Part shown: positions 1-6,149 of the stretch, one piece after another
Layout of the letters: each line of letters opens with the position of its first letter
How positions within the stretch are numbered: the first letter of the stretch is position 1
From: Anaerolineales bacterium
Lineage (GTDB): Bacteria; Chloroflexota; Anaerolineae; Promineifilales; Promineifilaceae
Length of the DNA: 6,234 bases
NCBI GenBank assembly: GCA_020432595.1
Contig: JAGQGA010000339.1
Coordinates: forward strand, 1-6,234
Direction: 5' to 3'
The notes under the pieces: model-generated
Told to the model about the DNA's origin: nothing
The model's input: the letters and a program-made list of their open reading frames with translations, nothing else
Databases searched by the model: none
Program-made: the position numbers and the translations under genes

Positions 1-463
1 AACCGCCGTCGCCGCTGGGGGCAAAAGCAATACGACCTTCGCATGTGCCTTCGGCTTCGGCCAGCAAACGGCCGTTTGCCGCCACCAGCACAATGACACA
101 GCGAAAACGGGCCGTGCGCTCCGCTTCTGGCACGTCGGCCAGCTTTTGCAGCAGCAGTTGGTAACGCTCAACGGCCGTTAATCCCGGCCCCCCATACCGC
201 GCCGAATACACCCCTGGCTCCCCATTCAGCGCGTCCACTTCCAGCCCCGAATCATCGGCCAGCGTCAGCCGCCCCGTCATCTGGGCATAGGCTGTGGCTT
301 TAAGCAGCGCATTACCTCGAAAGGTAACGGCCGTTTCCTCCACATCCTCCGTCACCCCCACCTCATCCAAACCCAGCCACCCCAGCTCCAAATCTGCCAG
401 CATCTCGGCAAACTCCCGCACCTTGCCCCGGTTATGGGTTGCCACCAATAACTCTTTCCTCAT
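1..463 (-). CDS. rdgB: XTP/dITP pyrophosphatase (RdgB/HAM1 family), 3' end cut off by window edge
   Basis: RdgB hydrolyses non-canonical purine triphosphates (dITP, XTP, dHAPTP) to monophosphate and pyrophosphate, keeping deaminated bases out of DNA and RNA in the cytosol. Translating the minus strand from the ATG at 463-461 gives 154 residues running off the left edge; the family is about 200, so roughly three quarters is present. It opens MRKELLVATHNRGKVREF, the substrate-binding T/S-x-N-x-x-K signature. It continues with EETAVTFRGNALLKA, then the strongly conserved ADDSGLEVDALNGEPGVYSA segment with the metal-binding acidic residues, then ARFRCVIVL. It ends in APSGDGG, where the family reads PAGTGGFGYDP. 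An AGGA lies 13 nt before the ATG, rather far for a Shine-Dalgarno. The gene is divergent from yceD. It carries three AACGGCCGTT copies in 154 codons. The family assignment is secure. Confidence 0.93.
   Translation of the reverse strand, partial: MRKELLVATHNRGKVREFAEMLADLELGWLGLDEVGVTEDVEETAVTFRGNALLKATAYAQMTGRLTLADDSGLEVDALNGEPGVYSARYGGPGLTAVERYQLLLQKLADVPEAERTARFRCVIVLVAANGRLLAEAEGTCEGRIAFAPSGDGG
67..76. repeat. AACGGCCGTT copy in rdgB (nearest the window edge)
   Basis: In the gene's frame this copy reads AAC-GGC-CGT (Asn-Gly-Arg), not Thr-Ala-Val. It shows no clear skew switch (plus-strand flanks G10/C14 and G11/C14). Confidence 0.9.
170..179. repeat. AACGGCCGTT copy in rdgB (middle)
   Basis: Encodes Thr-Ala-Val in LTAVE on the minus strand. 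Plus-strand flanks: left G12/C12, right G7/C20. Confidence 0.9.
326..335. repeat. AACGGCCGTT copy in rdgB (nearest the start codon)
   Basis: Encodes Thr-Ala-Val in EETAVTF on the minus strand. Plus-strand flanks: left G11/C9, right G1/C23, the most extreme one-sided skew seen. Confidence 0.9.
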
Positions 464-466
464 AAA

Positions 467-496
467 TTCACGCTTTTCCTTTTGCTATGCTATACT
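467..496 (+). promoter_or_regulatory. Probable sigma70-type promoter of yceD (extended -10)
   Basis: TATACT at 491-496 is preceded by TGC, giving an extended -10 element. TTCACG at 467-472 is a 4/6 match to a -35, with an 18-nt spacer. Transcription would start near 503, leaving a short leader that contains AAGGAA at 521-526, nine nt before the yceD ATG. It lies in the only gap between the divergent rdgB and yceD genes. Seen by eye only. Confidence 0.5.
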
Positions 497-535
497 ATCC
501 GATGCACATTTTAATTACGTAAGGAACATTTTGCC

Positions 536-1057
536 ATGAGCGAACAAGCCAACAGCCACAGATGGCCGTCACGGTTACGCTTCAACTATGGGTTTCTCCT
601 CGAAGCCACGCTGGGCACCTTCCGAGTCACCGAACTCGATTATCCCGATGTTCACGCCGAAGATATTATTCTGCGTCCCTTAAAAGGCAAAATCACCGCC
701 ACGCGCACCTCTGAGGGGATTTATATTTCAGGACGGCTAAAAAGCAAGCTCCCGACCGATTGTATGCGCTGTTTAGAACCAACGGAACAGCCCATCACCA
801 TCAAACTTGACGACCTGTTTTATTATCCGCCCCATTTGGCACCCGAAGGGGAGTTTGTGGTTGGTGAAAATGGCTTTATTGACCTGGCTCCCCTCATCCG
901 TGAACTCAGCCTCCTTGCCGTTCCCATCCAATCCTTGTGCAAACCCGATTGCCAGGGATTGTGCCAGGAATGCGGTCAGAATCTGAACGAAGGGGATTGC
1001 GGCTGCCAGGACGACGACATTGACCCACGCTTCGCCAAGCTGCGCGAACTTTTGTAA
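536..1057 (+). CDS. yceD: YceD/DUF177 family protein (23S rRNA accumulation protein)
   Basis: YceD proteins are small cytosolic proteins needed for normal 23S rRNA accumulation; their genes usually sit immediately upstream of rpmF (ribosomal protein L32). This 173-residue protein shows the family layout. An N-terminal beta-rich half includes LRPLKGKITATRTSEGIYISG (about 47-67) with C76-x-x-C79. A central DLFYY/GFIDLAPLIRELSLLAVP segment (about 93-130) follows, then the C-terminal signature C135-x3-C139-x-GLC143-x-x-C146-G-x-x-LN and C155-x-C157, ending in DPRFAKLREL. The eight cysteines suggest metal binding, as in many Gram-positive and Chloroflexota members. Start chosen for AAGGAA nine nt upstream and the promoter just before it. 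No L32 gene follows; obgE comes 90 nt later, so the ribosome-assembly theme is kept with a different partner. Confidence 0.9.
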   Translation: MSEQANSHRWPSRLRFNYGFLLEATLGTFRVTELDYPDVHAEDIILRPLKGKITATRTSEGIYISGRLKSKLPTDCMRCLEPTEQPITIKLDDLFYYPPHLAPEGEFVVGENGFIDLAPLIRELSLLAVPIQSLCKPDCQGLCQECGQNLNEGDCGCQDDDIDPRFAKLRELL

Positions 1058-1081
1058 TGTTCTTGCATCTATTCAGGTGTC

Positions 1082-1101
1082 ATACCCGCTTTCGCGGGTA
1101 T
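1082..1101. repeat. REP-like perfect hairpin between yceD and obgE
   Basis: Arms ATACCCGC (1082-1089) and GCGGGTAT (1094-1101) are perfect complements around a TTTC loop. The word CCCGCTTTCGCGGG, with GTCAT just outside it, looks like the short REP-type palindromes scattered between genes in many bacteria. No T-run follows on either strand, so it is not a textbook intrinsic terminator. It could still stabilise the yceD 3' end or attenuate read-through into obgE. Confidence 0.6.
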
Positions 1102-1147
1102 CCATCTTCAGCCTAGTCTGACAACCCTTTTTCATAGCTTTTAAACC

Positions 1148-2425
1148 ATGTTTTACGATAGAGCAAAAATCTATCTCCGCAGCGGCGATGGCGGGGATGG
1201 GATGATCAGTTTTCGCCGCGAAAAATTTGTCCCTTATGGTGGCCCAGACGGTGGCGATGGGGGTGCCGGTGGCAGCATTGTTTTTGTTGTCAACCACCAC
1301 ATGAACAGCCTCATTGGCTATCATCGTAATAACCATTACCGGGCAGGTAATGGTGTGCACGGCAACCGTAAAAATTGTACCGGAGCCAACGGCGACACGA
1401 TTCGGCTGGAAGTGGCTCCCGGAACCACTATCCGCAATGCCGAGACGGGCGACCTATTGGCCGACCTGACTGAACCGGGGCAGGAGTTTGTCATGCTTCA
1501 GGGTGGGCGCGGCGGGCGCGGCAATATCCATTTTGCCAACAGCCGCAGCCAAACGCCGCGCATTGCTGAACGGGGTGAACCGGGGCAAGAGCTATGGGTG
1601 ACGCTGGAGCTAAAAATTATTGCCGATGTGGGGATTGTGGGGGTGCCCAATGCGGGCAAATCTACACTGTTGGCGGCCGTAAGTGCTGCCCAGCCCAAGA
1701 TTGCCGACTACCCGTTTACCACGCTTCAACCCAATTTGGGGGTTGTGAACATAGGCGATGGCTTTGAAACGATGGTGCTGGCCGATATTCCGGGGCTAAT
1801 TGAGGGGGCGGCTGATGGTGTGGGGTTGGGGCATGATTTTCTGCGCCACATTGAGCGGACACGGGTGCTGATTCATTTGCTGGATGGGTCGGCGTTTGAG
1901 CCGCTGGAAGAGTGGAAGATGATCAATCAGGAGTTGGCACAGTACAAAGCCACGCTGGAGAAAAAGCCGCAGCTTGTGGTGCTGAACAAGATGGATTTGC
2001 CGGATGCCATTGCCTGGGAGCCGATTTTGGCGGAGGAGATTAAGGCGGCGGGCTATCCGTTTTGCTCGATTTCGGCGGTGACGGGGCAAGGGGTGCGGGA
2101 GATGCTGTTTCGGGTGAAGAAGATGCTGGATGACGCGCCGCCAGTGGAACTGGAACGGCCGTTAACGATGCCTGTTATTCGCGTAACGGCCGTTTCTGAC
2201 CCCAGCAACTTTACCATCACCCGTGAAGGCAACAACGACTGGCGCGTTAGCGGCATAGACATTGAGCGCATTGCCGCCATGACCTACTTTGAATTTGACG
2301 ACTCCCTACTCCGCTTCCAGCGCATTCTCGCCGGTATGGGCATTACCGAAGCCCTCACCGAAGCTGGCGTAGAAGTGGGCGACATCGTCCACATTGGCGA
2401 TGAAGAGTTAGAGTGGGCGGATTGA
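1148..2425 (+). CDS. obgE: Obg family GTPase ObgE (ribosome assembly / stringent response GTPase)
   Basis: ObgE is an essential GTPase that binds the 50S subunit and couples late ribosome assembly to GTP/ppGpp levels. All three domains are present in 425 residues, a normal length. The glycine-rich Obg fold covers about 1-158 (MFYDRAKIYLRSGDGGDG..., FRREKFVPYGGPDGGDGG..., QGGRGGRGN, RGEPG). The G domain, about 159-330, has G1 GVPNAGKS at 165-172, switch I DYPFTT at 187-192, G3 DIPG at 213-216 followed by LIEGAADGVGLGHDFLRHIERT, G4 NKMD at 280-283 and G5 SA at 309-310. A C-terminal OCT domain spans about 343-424. The start matches the canonical MF-x-D opening, although no Shine-Dalgarno precedes it. 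Third-position usage is G-rich in the middle and switches to C-rich after two AACGGCCGTT copies near codon 340. Often this gene follows rplU-rpmA; here it follows yceD. Confidence 0.97.
   Translation: MFYDRAKIYLRSGDGGDGMISFRREKFVPYGGPDGGDGGAGGSIVFVVNHHMNSLIGYHRNNHYRAGNGVHGNRKNCTGANGDTIRLEVAPGTTIRNAETGDLLADLTEPGQEFVMLQGGRGGRGNIHFANSRSQTPRIAERGEPGQELWVTLELKIIADVGIVGVPNAGKSTLLAAVSAAQPKIADYPFTTLQPNLGVVNIGDGFETMVLADIPGLIEGAADGVGLGHDFLRHIERTRVLIHLLDGSAFEPLEEWKMINQELAQYKATLEKKPQLVVLNKMDLPDAIAWEPILAEEIKAAGYPFCSISAVTGQGVREMLFRVKKMLDDAPPVELERPLTMPVIRVTAVSDPSNFTITREGNNDWRVSGIDIERIAAMTYFEFDDSLLRFQRILAGMGITEALTEAGVEVGDIVHIGDEELEWAD
2154..2194. repeat. Pair of AACGGCCGTT copies in obgE, 31 nt apart
   Basis: Copies at 2154-2163 and 2185-2194. 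The first is read Glu-Arg-Pro-Leu across its frame, the second Thr-Ala-Val (RVTAVS). They mark the junction between the G domain and the OCT domain. Flanks: left of the pair G16/C8, right G6/C15. Confidence 0.9.
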
Positions 2426-2427
2426 CG

Positions 2428-2489
2428 GTAATCAGTAATCGGTAATCGGTAATCAGTACACTGACCACCGATTACCGATTACTGATTAC
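2428..2489. terminator. Perfect 23-bp inverted repeat of a GTAATC(A/G) heptamer between convergent genes
   Basis: Arms 2428-2450 and 2467-2489 are exact reverse complements, with a 16-nt loop. The left side is a tandem of GTAATCA, GTAATCG, GTAATCG, GTAATCA (the fourth copy lies in the loop); the right arm is the mirror image of the first three. Placement two nt after the obgE stop and across the TAA of the convergent zinc-ribbon gene suggests a shared bidirectional transcription end. Neither side has a strong U-run, so termination is an inference from position and stem stability. Confidence 0.55.
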
Positions 2490-2677
2490 TCCTCTTCATC
2501 CATCGGTGCGGCAAAGCGGCGCATGTCATTGATAGGGAGCTTGACCTGCTTGCGGCAGCGGATACAGTCCACAGAGTGGTACTTGTGCTTTTTCTTCTCG
2601 GCCTTGGTAATGGCCTGTGCTAAATAATCCTTCGAGATCGTAAAAGTAGCCCCACAACTTGGGCAGCGAACGTCCAT
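2486..2677 (-). CDS. Small zinc-ribbon protein, function unknown
   Basis: A 63-residue protein opening MDVRCPSCGATF, with C5-x-x-C8 and C38-x-x-C41 (VDCIRC), the two knuckles of a four-cysteine zinc ribbon separated by a lysine-rich linker (AEKKKHKYH, about 26-34) and ending in an acidic MDEEE tail. An excellent Shine-Dalgarno, AGAGGAG (2684-2690 on the complement), stands six nt before the ATG, and the cysteine pattern is not something a random frame would give, so I regard the gene as real. The basic middle and zinc ribbon would fit nucleic-acid or protein binding, but I do not recognise a named family. It is convergent with obgE; its stop codon lies inside the heptamer hairpin. Its probable promoter is about 165 nt upstream, leaving a long structured leader. 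Confidence 0.8.
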   Translation of the reverse strand: MDVRCPSCGATFTISKDYLAQAITKAEKKKHKYHSVDCIRCRKQVKLPINDMRRFAAPMDEEE

Positions 2678-2695
2678 GAGTTTCTCCTCTAAAAT

Positions 2696-2742
2696 AGGAC
2701 GCAGATTTTTCTGATCAAGTAAATCAGGTGAATCTGCGTCCT
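2696..2742. repeat. 12-bp perfect inverted repeat in the zinc-ribbon gene leader
   Basis: AGGACGCAGATT (2696-2707) pairs exactly with 2731-2742; inside it CTGAT (2711-2715) pairs with ATCAG (2723-2727), giving a two-tier stem. Read on the plus strand it is followed by GTTTTTGTTT (2743-2752), which would suit an intrinsic terminator catching read-through from obgE. Read on the minus strand it lies six nt ahead of the zinc-ribbon gene's Shine-Dalgarno and could influence its expression. Confidence 0.6.
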
Positions 2743-2781
2743 GTTTTTGTTTATGGTGGTTGGCATAGCCGGTGTTGTCTC

Positions 2782-2832
2782 CTCGTATAAATGGTTGCTA
2801 GTTGCTGGTACGAGCCACTAACCACCAGCCAC
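2782..2832. repeat. Imperfect inverted word repeat (GTTGCTAGTTGCTGGT type)
   Basis: The left word at 2794-2809 (GTTGCTAGTTGCTGGT) matches the reverse complement of 2817-2832 at about 11 of 16 positions. A separate perfect 6-bp pair, CTCGTA (2782-2787) with TACGAG (2809-2814), overlaps it, so two alternative stems are possible. The element lies within the roughly 300-nt gene-free stretch 2678-2976. I see no gene or riboswitch signature here. Confidence 0.4.
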
Positions 2833-2843
2833 GATTTCCATTG

Positions 2844-2872
2844 ATTATGCAGCATTTTGGCTGTCCTCACAA
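2844..2872 (-). promoter_or_regulatory. Possible promoter of the zinc-ribbon gene
   Basis: On the minus strand TTGTGA (2867-2872, 4/6 to the -35 consensus) and CATAAT (2844-2849, 5/6 to the -10) are separated by exactly 17 nt. Transcription would begin near 2837, giving a leader of about 160 nt that contains both inverted repeats upstream of the zinc-ribbon gene. Confidence 0.4.
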
Positions 2873-2898
2873 TAATCCTTCGGTAAATGCGAGCAAAT

Positions 2899-2907
2899 TG
2901 TTATAAT
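2899..2907 (+). promoter_or_regulatory. Extended -10 promoter element of the PHP-ligase unit
   Basis: A perfect TATAAT at 2902-2907 is preceded by TG-T, the extended -10 arrangement; no good -35 is seen (TTCGGT at 17 nt). Expected start of transcription is about 2914. This falls downstream of the ATG at 2887, so it argues against that codon as the start of the PHP protein. Confidence 0.55.
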
Positions 2908-2943
2908 CCTGTCGGGCATTGGAGCAACTTTATTGTGTTATCG

Positions 2944-2966
2944 TCTGACAGCGTGTGGCTGTCAGA
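2944..2966. promoter_or_regulatory. Perfect 9-bp inverted repeat in the PHP gene leader; candidate operator or RNA hairpin
   Basis: TCTGACAGC (2944-2952) and GCTGTCAGA (2958-2966) are exact complements around GTGTG. The element begins about 30 nt after the predicted transcription start and ends 10 nt before the preferred ATG at 2977. It could be a dimeric repressor site or a hairpin controlling ribosome access. If translation began at GTG 2935 it would be coding instead. Confidence 0.4.
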
Positions 2967-2976
2967 ATTCGGCAAG

Positions 2977-3834
2977 ATGATTGAATGGGTTTCAATTCAC
3001 GGAGGACACAGCGGGCAGTTTTGCAACCACGCGGTGGACAGTTTGGAAGCGATTGTGCAGGCGTATGTGGCGGCTGGTTTTAGCTGGGTGGGTATTACGG
3101 AGCATATTCCGCCGGGCGGTGATGAGTTTGTCTATCCTGATGAGCAGGCGGTGGGATTAACGGCCGTTTCCCTCTACCACCGTTTCCGCGACTACATCCA
3201 GGTCGGCCGTGCCCTACAGCAACAATATGCCGACCGGCTTACTCTCTACATCGGCTGCGAAACCGAATATTACACCGGCTACGCCGACCACGTGCGGCGG
3301 CTGGTGGCTGAGTTCCAGCCGGATTATCTCGTCGGGTCGGTGCATCATCTGGAAGATATGTCGTTTGATATGGATGCCAATGATTATTGGCGCGTCGTAA
3401 CGGCCGTTGGTGGCCTCGATGCCTTCTACCAAAAATATTTCGACCAGCAGTACGACATGATCCAAACCTTGCGCCCCCAGGTCATCGGCCACTTCGACTA
3501 CCCCCGTATTTACGACCCCGACTACCCCACCCAACTGCGCCAGCCCGAAACCTGGGGCAAAATCATGCGCAATTTGCACGCCATCAAAGAAAGCGGCGCG
3601 ATTCTCGACTGCAACACCAAAGGGTGGCGTAAGGGGCATCCAGAACCATACATCTCGGCTCCCATTTTGCAGGAAGTACTGGCCCTCGGCATTCCTGTCG
3701 TCCCCGGCGACGACTCGCATGGGGTTGCCGAAATAGGCACGGATTTACAGCGTGGGATTGACTGGTTGCAGGCGGCCGGCGCTCCCACAAATTGGCAACG
3801 CCCGTGTTCGTCCGTGTTTGTTCGTGTTCCATAA
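2977..3834 (+). CDS. PHP-domain phosphoesterase, histidinol-phosphatase (HisJ/HisK)-like
   Basis: PHP proteins are metal-dependent phosphoesterases; the closest type is the HisJ/HisK histidinol-phosphatase, which makes L-histidinol. Counting from this ATG (285 residues, within the family range), the metal ligands appear in order: H8-x-x-H11 and CNHA (H18), TEH (41-43), GCETE (E95/E97), SVHH (H123), GHFD (H172/D174) and DDSH (245-248). A longer reading from 2887 is open, but the TATAAT at 2902-2907 predicts a transcript starting after it, and family members begin close to the first His motif. GTG at 2935 with GGAG ten nt upstream is a real alternative. The last residues (SSVFVRVP) are encoded by a 10-nt tandem repeat and look non-ancestral. 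The glutamine-synthetase-like gene follows after 16 nt, so they are probably co-transcribed. Substrate is not shown by sequence; no his genes are nearby. Confidence 0.85.
   Translation: MIEWVSIHGGHSGQFCNHAVDSLEAIVQAYVAAGFSWVGITEHIPPGGDEFVYPDEQAVGLTAVSLYHRFRDYIQVGRALQQQYADRLTLYIGCETEYYTGYADHVRRLVAEFQPDYLVGSVHHLEDMSFDMDANDYWRVVTAVGGLDAFYQKYFDQQYDMIQTLRPQVIGHFDYPRIYDPDYPTQLRQPETWGKIMRNLHAIKESGAILDCNTKGWRKGHPEPYISAPILQEVLALGIPVVPGDDSHGVAEIGTDLQRGIDWLQAAGAPTNWQRPCSSVFVRVP
3159..3168. repeat. AACGGCCGTT copy in the PHP gene (first)
   Basis: Read as Thr-Ala-Val in LTAVS. My counts in 40-nt flanks on the plus strand: left G15/C5, right G7/C18, one of the clearest skew switches in the window. Confidence 0.9.
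3399..3408. repeat. AACGGCCGTT copy in the PHP gene (second)
   Basis: Read as Thr-Ala-Val in VTAVG. Flanks: left G12/C6, right G8/C12, with the C-rich stretch continuing to about 3550. Confidence 0.9.
3803..3830. repeat. 10-nt tandem repeat (CGTGTT word) at the PHP gene 3' end
   Basis: CGTGTT recurs at 3803, 3813 and 3823, exactly ten nt apart, with similar filler (CGTC, TGTT, CCAT). It supplies the final codons of the PHP gene just before TAA at 3832-3834. Confidence 0.7.
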
Positions 3835-3840
3835 ACAAAA

Positions 3841-3845
3841 AGGAG
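3841..3845 (+). promoter_or_regulatory. Shine-Dalgarno AGGAG fixing the start of the ligase gene
   Basis: AGGAG followed by five A residues directly precedes the ATG at 3851. It selects this start over an upstream in-frame ATG at 3752, which lies inside the PHP gene and has no such site. Confidence 0.8.
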
Positions 3846-3850
3846 AAAAA

Positions 3851-5230
3851 ATGACAAACGTGCGTGGTATGTTAACCTTGGCCGAACTGGCCGAACTGGT
3901 GGAACAGGGTGAGATTGAGACGGTGGTGGTGGGGTTTACCGATCATTTCGGCCGTTTGATGGGCAAGCGGTTTGATGCCGAATTTTTTGTGGAAAATGCT
4001 GCCAGCCACGGCACACATGGCTGCGACTATTTGCTGACCGTTGACATGGAAATGGAGCCGGTGCCGGGTTACACCTTTGCCAACTGGGAGCGTGGCTACG
4101 GGGATTTTCATTTGGTACCCGATTTAGACACGCTGCGGCGAGCAAGCTGGCTGGACAAAACGGCGCTGGTGCTGTGTGATGTGGAGAATGAACGCGCCCA
4201 CGCCCCGGTGGAAGTCGCGCCGCGTTCCATTTTGCGGCGGCAGTTGGCAAAGGCAGAGGCTACGGGGTATGAGGTGATGTCGGCTTCGGAGCTTGAGTAC
4301 TACATTTTTGAGGATTCGTACCGCACGGCGCATGAGAAGAAGTATACCGATTTGAAAACGGCCGCTTGGTATTTGGAAGATTACCATATGTTCCAGGGGA
4401 TGCGGGAGGAAAAGTTCACGGCGGCGGCGCGGTATCACCTGAAGCATTCGGGCGTGCCGGTGGAAAATTCCAAGGGGGAATTCGGGCTGGGGCAGCACGA
4501 AATAAACGTGCGCTACGCCGATGCGCTGACAATGGCCGACCGGCATGTGGTTTACAAGCAATGCCTCAAAGAGGTGGCCGAGTCGCTGGGGGTGAGCGTG
4601 ACGTTTATGGCGAAGATTGAGCGCGAGCAGGCGGGGTCAAGCTGCCACATCCATTTGAGCCTGTGGCAGGGGGATAAAAATGCGTTTGCAGGGGATCAAA
4701 AATTTGGCCCGGTGATGGGTTCGGATCTTTTCCGCTGGTTTTTAGGGGGCTGGATTCGCCACGCGCCGGAGTTTATGGTCTTTTATGCGCCAACGATTAA
4801 CTCGTATAAGCGGTATCAGGATGGTTCCTGGGCACCGACGCGGCTGGCGTGGAGCTATGATAACCGAACGGCCGGTTTTCGGGTGGTGGGCAGCGGCCAA
4901 AGCCTTCGCATCGAGTGTCGTATTCCAGGAGCCGACTGCAACCCCTATTTGGCCTTTGCTGCCGCGCTAGCTTCAGGGCTGGACGGCATTGCCAACCAAA
5001 TTGAGCCGCCGGATATTTTTGAGGGCGACATTTACTCGGCCGCCCATTTGCCCCGCGTTCCCTACACGCTGCGCGAAGCGACTGACCTGTTTGCCAACAG
5101 CGACTTTGTGCGTGAGGCACTAGGGGAGGCGGTGGTGGCGCACTACACCCATTTTTTCCGCACCGAGCAGAAGGCGTTTGATGAGTATGTAACGGATTGG
5201 GAGCGCCACCGCTATTTTGAGCGGATTTAA
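3851..5230 (+). CDS. Glutamine-synthetase-like gamma-glutamyl ligase (GSI fold, probably not ammonia-specific)
   Basis: ATP-dependent ligase of the glutamine synthetase superfamily, 459 residues from the AGGAG-supported start. The N-terminal beta-grasp domain is about 20-113 and the catalytic domain about 120-455. Visible active-site elements are SELEYY (E147, E149), E210 with GQHEI (E217), GSSCHIHLSL (262-271; H266, H268), NSYKRY (317-322), DNRTAGFR (R339, R344) and IECRIPGADCNPYLA (E355, R357), covering metals, ATP and glutamate. Two ammonia-site features of GlnA are absent. The N-terminal DGSS motif (Asp50 in Salmonella) is not found, and the flap normally reading PGYEAP (Glu327) reads DGSWAP here. 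The adenylylation-site tyrosine region is also not recognisable. This pattern suits gamma-glutamyl-polyamine or -ethanolamide synthetases and FluG-like ligases. It probably shares a transcript with the PHP gene. The exact amine is unknown. Confidence 0.88.
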   Translation: MTNVRGMLTLAELAELVEQGEIETVVVGFTDHFGRLMGKRFDAEFFVENAASHGTHGCDYLLTVDMEMEPVPGYTFANWERGYGDFHLVPDLDTLRRASWLDKTALVLCDVENERAHAPVEVAPRSILRRQLAKAEATGYEVMSASELEYYIFEDSYRTAHEKKYTDLKTAAWYLEDYHMFQGMREEKFTAAARYHLKHSGVPVENSKGEFGLGQHEINVRYADALTMADRHVVYKQCLKEVAESLGVSVTFMAKIEREQAGSSCHIHLSLWQGDKNAFAGDQKFGPVMGSDLFRWFLGGWIRHAPEFMVFYAPTINSYKRYQDGSWAPTRLAWSYDNRTAGFRVVGSGQSLRIECRIPGADCNPYLAFAAALASGLDGIANQIEPPDIFEGDIYSAAHLPRVPYTLREATDLFANSDFVREALGEAVVAHYTHFFRTEQKAFDEYVTDWERHRYFERI

Positions 5231-5236
5231 TTTTTT

Positions 5237-5350
5237 GACAGGATTCACAGGATTTTACAGGATTATTTAAGGTTAGCAGTCAGCATACGCGGCCATGCCA
5301 AACCCTGCTAAACGACCTATCGAAATCCTGTTAATCCTGTAAATCCTGTC
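5237..5350. repeat. Nested inverted repeat built from ACAGGATT words between convergent genes
   Basis: ACAGGATT occurs at 5238, 5247 and 5257; its complement AATCCTGT at 5324, 5333 and 5342. The outer arms pair over about 27 nt with one mismatch and a one- or two-nt bulge. Inside, TTAGCAG (5273-5279) pairs with CTGCTAA (5305-5311), and GCAT (5283-5286) with ATGC (5295-5298). Almost the whole 127-nt gap can fold into one rod. Flanking runs are A-rich or weak in the transcribed sense, so it is not a classic intrinsic terminator, though its site between two gene ends suits transcript end protection. Confidence 0.6.
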
Positions 5351-5357
5351 TTATTGC

Positions 5358-6149
5358 TTATTGCAAGGCAGCAACAATGCCACCGTCTACCATCATCACG
5401 GAGCCAGTGATGTAGCTGGCTTTCTCTGAGGCCAGAAAAACGACCATGTTGGCAAATTCGTCCGGCCGGCCGAGCCGCCCCAGCGGAATGCGGTTAATGG
5501 TTGCCTGACGCACCTCGTCCACCGTTTTGCCGCTTTTGCTGGCGTTGGCCTGGTTTAGCTCGTCAATGCGCTCGGTGGCAATGGTGCCAGGAGCCACCAC
5601 ATTGACTAAAATGCCGTGCGGAGCCAGCTCGCTTGCCATCGTTTTGGCCGTACCCAACACGCCGGTCCGCATGGCGTTGGACAGCACCAGGTTGGGGATG
5701 GGCTGTTTGATGGAGGAGGAGGTGATGGCGATGATGCGCCCGTAGCCTCCGGCCTTCATGTGGGGGATGGCGGCGTGGCTGAGCCAAACAAAGCTCATCA
5801 GGTTTTGCTCAAATGCTTTGTACCATGATGGCTCGGCGGTAGCCTCAAACCCCCCGGCCGGTGGGCCACCGGCGTTGTGTACCACAATGTCCACGCCGCC
5901 GTACTGCTCGACACAGGTGGCAACGACGTTCTCTAATTCGGCTTTTTGGCTGACATCGGCAGAAACGGCCGTTATCCGCACCCCCGTCGCCCCCCGAATC
6001 TTCTCCGCCGCCGCCTCTGCCCGTTCCAGCGACCGGCTGCAAATCACCAAATCACACCCCTCCTGCGCCAGCCCCATCGCACACGCATACCCGAGCCCCC
6101 TGCTGGCCGCCAATACCACCGCCCGTTTTCCTTTCAATCCTAAATCCAT
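5358..6149 (-). CDS. Short-chain dehydrogenase/reductase-like protein with non-canonical active site
   Basis: A 263-residue Rossmann-fold SDR, usually annotated as 3-oxoacyl-ACP reductase-like. The nucleotide-binding loop reads AASRGLG (14-20) instead of TGxxxGxG; SADVS (63-67) and HNAGG (91-95, for NNAG) follow. The catalytic serine region is ITSSS (142-146). Where Tyr-x-x-x-Lys should stand, about 13 and 17 residues later, the protein reads LVLSNAMRTG (154-163), so both Tyr and Lys are missing. PGTIATERI and the C-terminal GRPDEFANMVVFLASEKASYITGSVMMVDGG are normal. This matches the divergent BKR-like SDR subgroup, whose members lack the usual tetrad. GAGGTGA (6153-6159 on the complement) fixes the start. 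The 85 nt upstream (6150-6234) are AT-rich and must hold the promoter, but I see no convincing -35/-10 pair. Substrate unknown. Confidence 0.9.
   Translation of the reverse strand: MDLGLKGKRAVVLAASRGLGYACAMGLAQEGCDLVICSRSLERAEAAAEKIRGATGVRITAVSADVSQKAELENVVATCVEQYGGVDIVVHNAGGPPAGGFEATAEPSWYKAFEQNLMSFVWLSHAAIPHMKAGGYGRIIAITSSSIKQPIPNLVLSNAMRTGVLGTAKTMASELAPHGILVNVVAPGTIATERIDELNQANASKSGKTVDEVRQATINRIPLGRLGRPDEFANMVVFLASEKASYITGSVMMVDGGIVAALQ
5964..5973. repeat. AACGGCCGTT copy in the SDR gene
   Basis: Encodes Thr-Ala-Val in RITAVSADV on the minus strand. Plus-strand flanks: left G10/C10, right G7/C23. Confidence 0.9.

What the first reader, a model, noticed from the sequence alone, without database searches (positions are those of the whole stretch)
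67..5973. Eight perfect copies of the palindrome AACGGCCGTT in 6.2 kb
Copies at 67, 170, 326, 2154, 2185, 3159, 3399 and 5964, with one-mismatch copies at 4357 and 4867. With equal base frequencies about 0.006 copies would be expected, so the word is strongly enriched. All lie in four coding genes on both strands; none is in a gap or in yceD. It recalls HIP1 (GCGATCGC) of cyanobacteria and DNA uptake sequences of Neisseria and Pasteurellaceae, but is a different word. Possible roles: uptake sequence, methylation or repair mark, nucleoid protein site.
Basis: partly seen in the sequence, partly recalled or inferred. Interest (0 to 1): 0.75.

Follow-up and report, generated by a model that had tools for sequence, protein, structure and literature searches.

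The report
Palindrome repeated through Chloroflexota genomes
A ten-letter DNA palindrome recurs thousands of times in the genomes of one group of uncultivated Chloroflexota bacteria and is preserved copy by copy, much like a long-unexplained palindrome of cyanobacteria, so it is very probably a working genome-wide DNA mark whose reader is still unknown.

Summary
All eight copies are at the stated places; permuting synonymous codons gives a mean of 0.10 against seven in called ORFs. The window's genome is not held, but its kin, a Promineifilum-containing order, carry the word genome-wide: 29 of 56 genomes have 361-5060 copies, the reversed control word at most 42 in those 29. The conserved unit is ACGGCCGT; outer A..T are preferred to a degree that varies by genus. 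Other members use other words, mostly round the same CGGCCG core; one nested clade has lost it. Copies are held in place: 115 of 121 kept between six disjoint genome pairs, 2 changes against 53.4 expected at four-fold sites inside the word; the footprint is 8 or 10 bp. This is the HIP class known from cyanobacteria, with a new word and phylum and no methyltransferase family that tracks it. Best reading: a binding site for an unknown symmetric DNA-binding factor, kept by selection or biased repair. Methyl-directed maintenance and an uptake sequence remain possible; chance is excluded for the kin.

The parts
67..76 (.). HIP copy AACGGCCGTT in ham1/rdgB gene; the 8-mer is present at the aligned place in 6 of 13 aligned A-word genomes
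170..179 (.). HIP copy in ham1/rdgB; full 10-mer at the aligned place in 5 of 19 aligned A-word genomes (G032-G035, G041)
326..335 (.). HIP copy in ham1/rdgB; present at the aligned place in 0 of 19 aligned A-word genomes
2154..2163 (.). HIP copy in obg; present in 0 of 21 aligned A-word genomes (gappy local alignment)
2185..2194 (.). HIP copy in obg, 31 bp from the previous one; 8-mer in 1 of 21 aligned A-word genomes (gappy local alignment)
3159..3168 (.). HIP copy in PHP-domain gene
3399..3408 (.). HIP copy in PHP-domain gene
5964..5973 (.). HIP copy in short-chain dehydrogenase gene
4357..4366 (.). one-mismatch copy (AACGGCCGCT) in glutamine-synthetase-like gene
4867..4876 (.). one-mismatch copy (AACGGCCGGT) in glutamine-synthetase-like gene
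2..463 (-). Ham1/RdgB-like gene (PF01725), runs off the window; holds three copies
1148..2425 (+). GTPase Obg, holds two copies; used to place the window among its kin (60-76% protein identity over the matches of the order)
2887..3834 (+). PHP-domain protein gene; holds two copies
5358..6149 (-). short-chain dehydrogenase gene; holds one copy

Best explanation
The word is a highly iterated palindrome (HIP): a DNA-level mark present about once per kilobase throughout the genome and kept copy by copy. SHOWN on relatives: genome-wide excess, independence from codon use, a sharp 8-10 bp footprint, strong conservation of individual copies, roughly random spacing, absence from one nested clade, different words in other lineages. 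INFERRED: each copy is read as double-stranded DNA by a two-fold-symmetric (homodimeric) protein that reads the two halves independently; each copy adds a small, equal benefit wherever it lies (or is restored by a repair process with that specificity). Taking the four-fold-site slowdown at face value (2 changes against 53.4), the force per site is about 5 in population-scaled units (hand calculation, simple two-state model); the octamer's excess in the same model, mostly 30-68-fold, corresponds to about 3.4-4.2, so the two agree only roughly. The most likely role is a distributed binding or anchor site in chromosome upkeep (nucleoid, repair or recombination); the reader protein is not identified.
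For: Genome-wide counts: 29 of 56 genomes of the order have 361-5060 copies, control word at most 42 in those 29. Synonymous-codon permutation: G017 109 observed, mean 2.1; G021 84 against 3.3; G044's own word 62 against 5.3. All three frames are used and copies also lie outside called ORFs. Conservation: six disjoint genome pairs keep 115 of 121 copies, 12 of 12 outside called ORFs; inside the word 2 of 217 four-fold third bases changed, 53.4 expected from the same codons elsewhere. Profile: positions 1-4 from the centre 97-100% identical, falling at position 5 in octamer genomes and at position 6 in the 10-mer pair G016-G017. At under 75% DNA identity 910 of 1855 comparisons keep the copy, against 9.2% of matched control octamers (comparisons share genomes). 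Half-sites close to independent: doubly A-flanked copies against p squared, e.g. 121 and 119.8, 95 and 90.3; largest shortfalls 22 and 28.2, 17 and 23.7. Words differ by clade: A, T, G or no fixed letter outside CGGCCG; TGCCGGCA in G026.
Against: No binding protein was found. Conservation cannot tell selection from a repair or conversion process with the same specificity. Spacing looks random (12 of 13 sets), whereas a pure architectural role might favour even spacing. Density outside called ORFs is lower than inside in 12 of 14 sets, only marginally in G017, which an equal-benefit model does not predict without further assumptions. The relatives are mostly MAGs of unstated completeness, and the window's own genome is not held, so genome-wide claims are about kin. 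Three of the five window copies that could be aligned are at places where 0-1 of 19-21 relatives have one, so copies also turn over. The border between word-bearing and word-less genomes is soft at the six-base level (CGGCCG 3.5 times expected in G054, classed word-less, 4.1 in G052, classed core-only).
Confidence: 0.52

Rival explanations
1. Methyltransferase-coupled HIP, as proposed for cyanobacteria by Elhai (PMC4390886): an orphan methyltransferase marks an inner sequence, and methyl-directed mismatch repair ratchets neighbours into the palindrome and protects it.
For: Same class of object; single-mismatch copies are clearly in excess only at the outermost octamer position (A to T 3.36, A to G 1.96 times expected), as that paper's abstract reports for HIP1; GGCC and CGGCCG are usual cytosine-methyltransferase targets (recalled). 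Of 27 A-word genomes 23 have a PF00145 or PF01555 match, and a D12 family is in 42 of 56 genomes.
Against: Of 27 A-word genomes, 13 have no PF00145 match, 5 no PF01555 match, and 4 (G012, G018, G034, G041) have neither at the thresholds used. D12 enzymes methylate A (recalled) and occur in genomes without the A-word such as G008, G019, G020, G038, G039, G045, while the G044 word has no A or T. MutS_I is not found in 6 of 27, including G017, which has the most copies, and its sister G016. Vsr is in 8 of 56. MAG gaps could explain single absences.
Confidence: 0.22
2. DNA uptake sequence spread by molecular drive: competent cells prefer DNA with the word and recombine it in.
For: About one per kb, scattered through genes, lineage-specific; ComEC in 50 of 56 genomes. 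Raw single-mismatch to exact ratio is 906 to 1737 here, the same 0.52 as the 764 to 1471 quoted for H. influenzae (passage of PMC1939737).
Against: The word is palindromic, whereas the H. influenzae and N. gonorrhoeae words quoted in PMC1939737 are not; no conserved extension beyond 8-10 bp, though the N. gonorrhoeae word is also short; after subtracting the Markov expectation the near-miss excess here is only 113 (no like-for-like figure for H. influenzae was computed); ComEC is equally present in genomes without the word.
Confidence: 0.17
3. By-product of palindrome avoidance: type II restriction pressure purges other 6-bp palindromes and CGGCCG is merely exempt.
For: Other palindromic hexamers (CGGCCG and GCCGGC left out) are depleted in word-bearing genomes (median O/E 0.48, 37 genomes) more than in word-less ones (0.73, 13 genomes); Spearman -0.63 over 50 genomes, -0.43 within the 37, not corrected for kinship.
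Against: Exemption cannot raise a 10-mer one to several hundred fold above a background model, nor freeze synonymous sites inside it.
Confidence: 0.05
4. Chance cluster, codon usage or a favoured tripeptide.
For: The commonest frame of the A-word encodes Thr-Ala-Val (for the frame; reading of the codons mine).
Against: Synonymous-codon permutation, genome-wide counts, presence in all frames and outside ORFs, sharp footprint.
Confidence: 0.01

Closest known systems
HIP1 (GCGATCGC) and alternate HIPs of cyanobacteria (PMC4390886; abstract, passages and two of three parts of the Discussion seen)
   Same: GC-rich palindrome, about 1000-2000 per Mb, extended forms, alternate words in relatives, low or absent in some lineages, one-off copies mainly at the outermost position.
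   Different: Other phylum; core CGGCCG, not CGATCG (below expectation in all ten genomes tabulated, e.g. 0 against 57 in G015); a clade-wide family of words with graded outer letters; no methyltransferase family found that tracks it; MutS apparently dispensable.
DNA uptake sequences of Neisseriaceae and Pasteurellaceae (PMC1939737, passages seen)
   Same: Short, abundant, lineage-specific; similar raw ratio of single-mismatch to exact copies.
   Different: Palindromic; sharp 8-10 bp footprint; ComEC does not track it.
Chi and KOPS-type polar chromosome signals (recalled)
   Same: Over-represented short DNA words.
   Different: Those are strand-oriented; a palindrome cannot carry orientation.

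Membership tests
HIP class (highly iterated palindromes, sensu Elhai 2015) | Palindromic word strongly over-represented genome-wide | tested here: met
   relatives; window
HIP class (highly iterated palindromes, sensu Elhai 2015) | Density about 1000-2000 per Mb | tested here: met
   ACGGCCGT 6777 in 5.9 Mb of G001; octamer excess about 1.0-2.3 per kb in most A-, T- and G-word genomes, lower in G013 (0.57), G005 (0.36) and the core-only genomes
HIP class (highly iterated palindromes, sensu Elhai 2015) | A methyltransferase for some part of the word in every HIP genome | tested here: not met
   4 of 27 A-word genomes lack both PF00145 and PF01555 at the thresholds used; MAGs, and recognition sequences of the enzymes present are not testable here. 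The paper itself notes some HIP1 genomes without the CGATCG enzyme
HIP class (highly iterated palindromes, sensu Elhai 2015) | One-off copies deviate mostly at the outermost positions | tested here: met
   outermost letter 593 observed against 320 expected, inner letters 313 against 473
HIP1 proper | Word GCGATCGC with CGATCG core | tested here: not met
   CGATCG below expectation in the ten genomes tabulated; GCGATCGC seen 3 times (5.9 times expected) only in L007, from a word-less genome, among the palindromes listed
DNA uptake sequence | Preferential uptake by competent cells | not testable with these tools
   no culture or assay; ComEC present regardless of word
DNA uptake sequence | Abundant near-miss copies | tested here: inconclusive
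   raw ratio 0.52, as quoted for H. influenzae; excess over a Markov expectation small
Dnd phosphorothioate mark (GGCC core in Streptomyces, recalled) | dnd genes in word-bearing genomes | tested here: not met
   DndC TIGR03183 in 6 of 56 genomes, 5 above cut-off

The most novel reading that the evidence does not exclude
A second, independent HIP system in bacteria that does not depend on DNA methylation: thousands of equal, additive sites for one homodimeric DNA-binding protein whose changing specificity has rewritten the whole set of genomic sites several times within one order (A-, T-, G-flanked and GCCGGC words), alongside a general purge of other palindromes.
Probability: 0.38. Interest if true: 0.88.

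Novelty: new variant of a known kind. Interest (0 to 1): 0.75.

Why it matters
HIP1 was described in cyanobacteria in 1995 (passage) and the 2015 paper still calls the link between HIPs and methyltransferases a mystery. The copy-by-copy conservation shows that many synonymous sites per genome are under constraint unrelated to the encoded protein, which also matters for codon-usage and dN/dS work on these bacteria.

Tried and rejected
Chance or codon use: rejected for the kin. Cytosine, N4/N6 and D12 methyltransferases, MutS, Vsr, DndC and ComEC as partners: none follows the word over the order (thresholds E 1e-20, 1e-15, 1e-10, 1e-5, 1e-5, 1e-20, 1e-10 in that order). Even spacing: only G031 is more even than random at P below 0.05 (P 0.008; 13 sets from 12 genomes). 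Near-miss scarcity as an argument against an uptake sequence: I first used it, but the raw ratio equals the one quoted for H. influenzae, so it was dropped; the odds of the uptake rival went from 0.12 to 0.17, of the main reading from 0.55 to 0.52, and of the novel case from 0.40 to 0.38. Loss of old sites in the word-less clade (0 of 233 comparisons, matched controls 9.5%) was not taken as proof of active erasure: the 233 share sites and genomes, and neutral decay alone would leave few. Word outside the order: among 298 genomes of the class, 19 of them in the order, 1 of the 279 others has CGGCCG at least three times GCCGGC (G274; read by eye); among 251 genomes of the phylum, 2 of them in the order, none of the 249 others exceeds 471 ACGGCCGT. 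Eight outside contigs picked for skewed counts showed no comparable 8- or 10-mer, though GCCGGC is 4.5 and 3.3 times expected in L229 and L230 and some 8-10-mers reach high ratios on 3-5 copies. Literature: the listings showed no report of this word or of HIPs in Chloroflexota; the open library lacks most subscription papers, and a 2018 NAR study of HIP1 selection (recalled) was not held. The Thermus regulator paper that contains the letters (PMC6651687) was seen only in the listing.
Full report
OBSERVATION. The eight lie in four genes: Ham1/RdgB, Obg, a PHP-domain protein and a short-chain dehydrogenase. All eight ACGGCCGT octamers of the window are the full 10-mer. Permuting synonymous codons among the window's called ORFs gives 0.10 copies on average (maximum 1 in 40 runs) against 7 seen there.

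KIN. No whole genome is held for the window. Obg finds eight related contigs among GTDB representatives at 67-72% identity (best segment), titled Promineifilum, Ardenticatenia, Anaerolineales, Anaerolineae or Chloroflexi MAGs; a ninth hit was an unrelated Flavobacterium. The order of the first of these (56 genomes, handles G001-G056) was used for the comparisons; Obg was found in 49 of 56 at E 1e-100, at 60-76% identity. An Obg tree holds 48 of the 56 genomes and the window; the window falls in a 34-row clade with all 24 A-word genomes that are in the tree, G005 and the eight Promineifilum-clade genomes (several forks open, and no smaller starred set holds the window).

GENOME-WIDE. AACGGCCGTT occurs 361-5060 times in 29 of 56 genomes; the reversed control word is at most 42 in those 29. 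Six more are intermediate or slightly raised (G015 83, G046 51, G049 122, G050 79, G051 99, G052 149; controls 0, 35, 1, 6, 2, 22). The other 21 have 4-29; among them the eight genomes of the Promineifilum clade have 4-22, like their controls of 10-27, and G026 has 4 with 157 of the control word. That clade is nested inside the A-word clade in the Obg tree (100/100 support for the eight), so one loss is the simplest reading.

ONE CORE, SEVERAL WORDS. In about 1.9 Mb of DNA from the 56 genomes (extended) the top palindromes are ACGGCCGT or AACGGCCGTT in the A-word genomes (octamer mostly 30-68 times a second-order Markov expectation; G013 18, G005 16, G041 144); TCGGCCGA/TTCGGCCGAA in G014 and G031; GCGGCCGC/CGCGGCCGCG in G044; CGGCCG without a fixed neighbour in G015, G048, G049, G050 and G052; TGCCGGCA in G026. 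I classed 13 of the 50 genomes with at least 15 kb read as word-less (octamer excess 0.12-0.50 per kb); six genomes gave less than 15 kb. The classing is mine and soft at the six-base level. In A-word genomes the next outer letter is A with frequency 0.47-0.93 in most genera, but C is commonest in G003 and G009-G013, T in G028-G029 and G in G030. The two sides are close to independent: copies flanked by A on both sides match p squared in most sets, with the largest shortfalls in G033 (22 against 28.2) and G036 (17 against 23.7). This is how a dimer reading two half-sites additively would behave (inference).

SHARPNESS. Pooled over 28 A-word sets (27 genomes and the window; G005 left out), the octamer is seen 1737 times against 41.4 expected. 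Its single-mismatch variants are seen 906 times against 793 expected: the outermost letter 593 against 320, the three inner letters 313 against 473. H. influenzae is quoted with 764 singly mismatched uptake sequences for 1471 exact ones (passage in PMC1939737), the same raw ratio of 0.52, so the raw count does not separate the two kinds; a like-for-like null for H. influenzae was not computed.

NOT CODON USE. Synonymous-codon permutation: G017 109 observed against a mean of 2.1; G016 43 against 0.6; G021 84 against 3.3; G033 75 against 9.5; G044 62 against 5.3; G031 62 against 3.1; G015 212 against 30.6 (each with its own word; 14 sets run, all far above the shuffles' maximum). All three reading frames are used. 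Copies occur outside called ORFs too: at about equal density in G017 (1.03 against 1.05 per kb) and slightly higher in G033 and G031, lower in the other 11 of 14 sets.

EACH COPY IS HELD. In 15 pairwise alignments of A-word genomes at 76-95% DNA identity, 67-100% of copies are identical in the partner (92% or more in 13 of 15 pairs), while matched control octamers are kept at 15-67% (pairs share genomes). Using six pairs that share no genome, 115 of 121 copies are kept, including 12 of 12 outside called ORFs; inside the word 2 of 217 four-fold third bases differ, where 53.4 are expected from the same codons elsewhere. The conserved footprint is the word itself: identity is 97-100% over the four positions on each side of the centre, then drops at the fifth to 75-86% in four octamer groups at 76-92% identity, but only at the sixth in the 10-mer pair G016-G017; the 95% pair G010-G013 is too similar to tell. 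Amino acids wholly inside the word change at 15 of 742 (2.0%) against 11.6% outside (12 pairs, both directions, shared genomes). Between genomes under 75% identical, 910 of 1855 comparisons keep the copy, controls 9.2%. In the Promineifilum clade 0 of 233 aligned copies remain as the octamer, and 21 keep the CGGCCG core.

TURNOVER. A-word copies do not coincide with T- or G-word copies (0 of 21 and 0 of 23; in the other direction 0 of 29 and 0 of 96), nor with the G026 word (0 of 32); matched controls would be kept at 2-11%, so this says only that sites are not shared, on small numbers. Against core-only genomes 14 of 61 A-word copies have CGGCCG in place. A change of word therefore seems to replace sites rather than edit their edges. 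Of the window's own copies, the one at 170 is shared as a 10-mer with 5 of 19 aligned genomes and the one at 67 as an octamer with 6 of 13; those at 326, 2154 and 2185 with 0-1 of 19-21. The copies at 3159, 3399 and 5964 were not covered by these alignments.

SPACING. Gaps between copies are like random placement in 12 of 13 sets; G031 alone is more even (P 0.008). This argues against a strict distance requirement.

PARTNER. PF00145 is not found in 13 of 27 A-word genomes, PF01555 in 5, both in 4. PF02086 is in 42 of 56, with and without the word, and missing in A-word genomes G003, G016 and G035. MutS_I is not found in 6 of 27, including G017, which has the most copies, and its sister G016. 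Vsr is in 8 of 56, DndC in 6 of 56, ComEC in 50 of 56. Completeness is not stated for these genomes, so single absences are weak; the pattern over 27 is stronger.

PALINDROME PURGE. Word-bearing genomes lack other palindromic hexamers: median observed/expected 0.48 in 37 genomes against 0.73 in 13 word-less ones (CGGCCG and GCCGGC left out); Spearman -0.63 between the ratio and the top octamer's excess, without correction for kinship. In G015 the purge is extreme: CGATCG 0 against 57, GCCGGC 0 against 52, while CGGCCG is 348 against 51. The window shows it too: 31 against 108. Whether this is cause, consequence or a parallel effect of restriction pressure is open.

KNOWN KIND. Elhai (PMC4390886; abstract, passages and the first two of three parts of the Discussion read) treats HIPs as a class with HIP1 as the prime example, gives 1000-2000 per Mb, and ties them to methyltransferases and a hypothetical methyl-directed repair ratchet. 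The present word shares the class features but has another core, another phylum and no methyltransferase family that follows it. It is not HIP1; whether it aids uptake is untested. The listings showed no report of it.

VERDICT. A real genome-wide element of the kin and, by its density here, probably of the window's organism; very probably functional, kept copy by copy. Mechanism: most likely a binding site for an unknown dimeric DNA-binding factor, with methyl-directed maintenance as the chief rival and an uptake sequence third.

Noticed in passing
G015 stretches (L146, L147, L210) and most word-bearing genomes; window as a whole: Strong depletion of other 6-bp palindromes (window 31 against 108 expected; G015 311 against 1132), correlated with the word's excess.
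   Followed up: partly
L080, L086, L089, L092 (G033, G022, G028, G039): A PF01555 methyltransferase of 329 aa at about 72-76% identity in three A-word genomes and in G039, which lacks the word; target unknown.
   Followed up: partly
G026 (L027, L138, L139, L192, L193): A different iterated palindrome, TGCCGGCA (45 observed, 25 times expected), while CGGCCG is nearly absent (3 against 38).
   Followed up: partly
L229 (G117) and L230 (G152), other genomes of the class: GCCGGC 4.5 and 3.3 times expected on 10 and 5 kb, without a clear 8-mer extension; possibly further six-base iterated palindromes.
   Followed up: no
window 2428-2489: Two short arrays of 7-bp repeats (GTAATCA, ACCGATT) just downstream of obg.
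   Followed up: no
window 5234-5364: Short 9-10 bp repeats (ACAGGATTC, AAATCCTGT) between the glutamine-synthetase-like gene and the dehydrogenase gene; could be a terminator-like inverted repeat.
   Followed up: no
G017, G016: MutS_I not found in these two sister genomes, which carry the strictest 10-mer form of the word.
   Followed up: no
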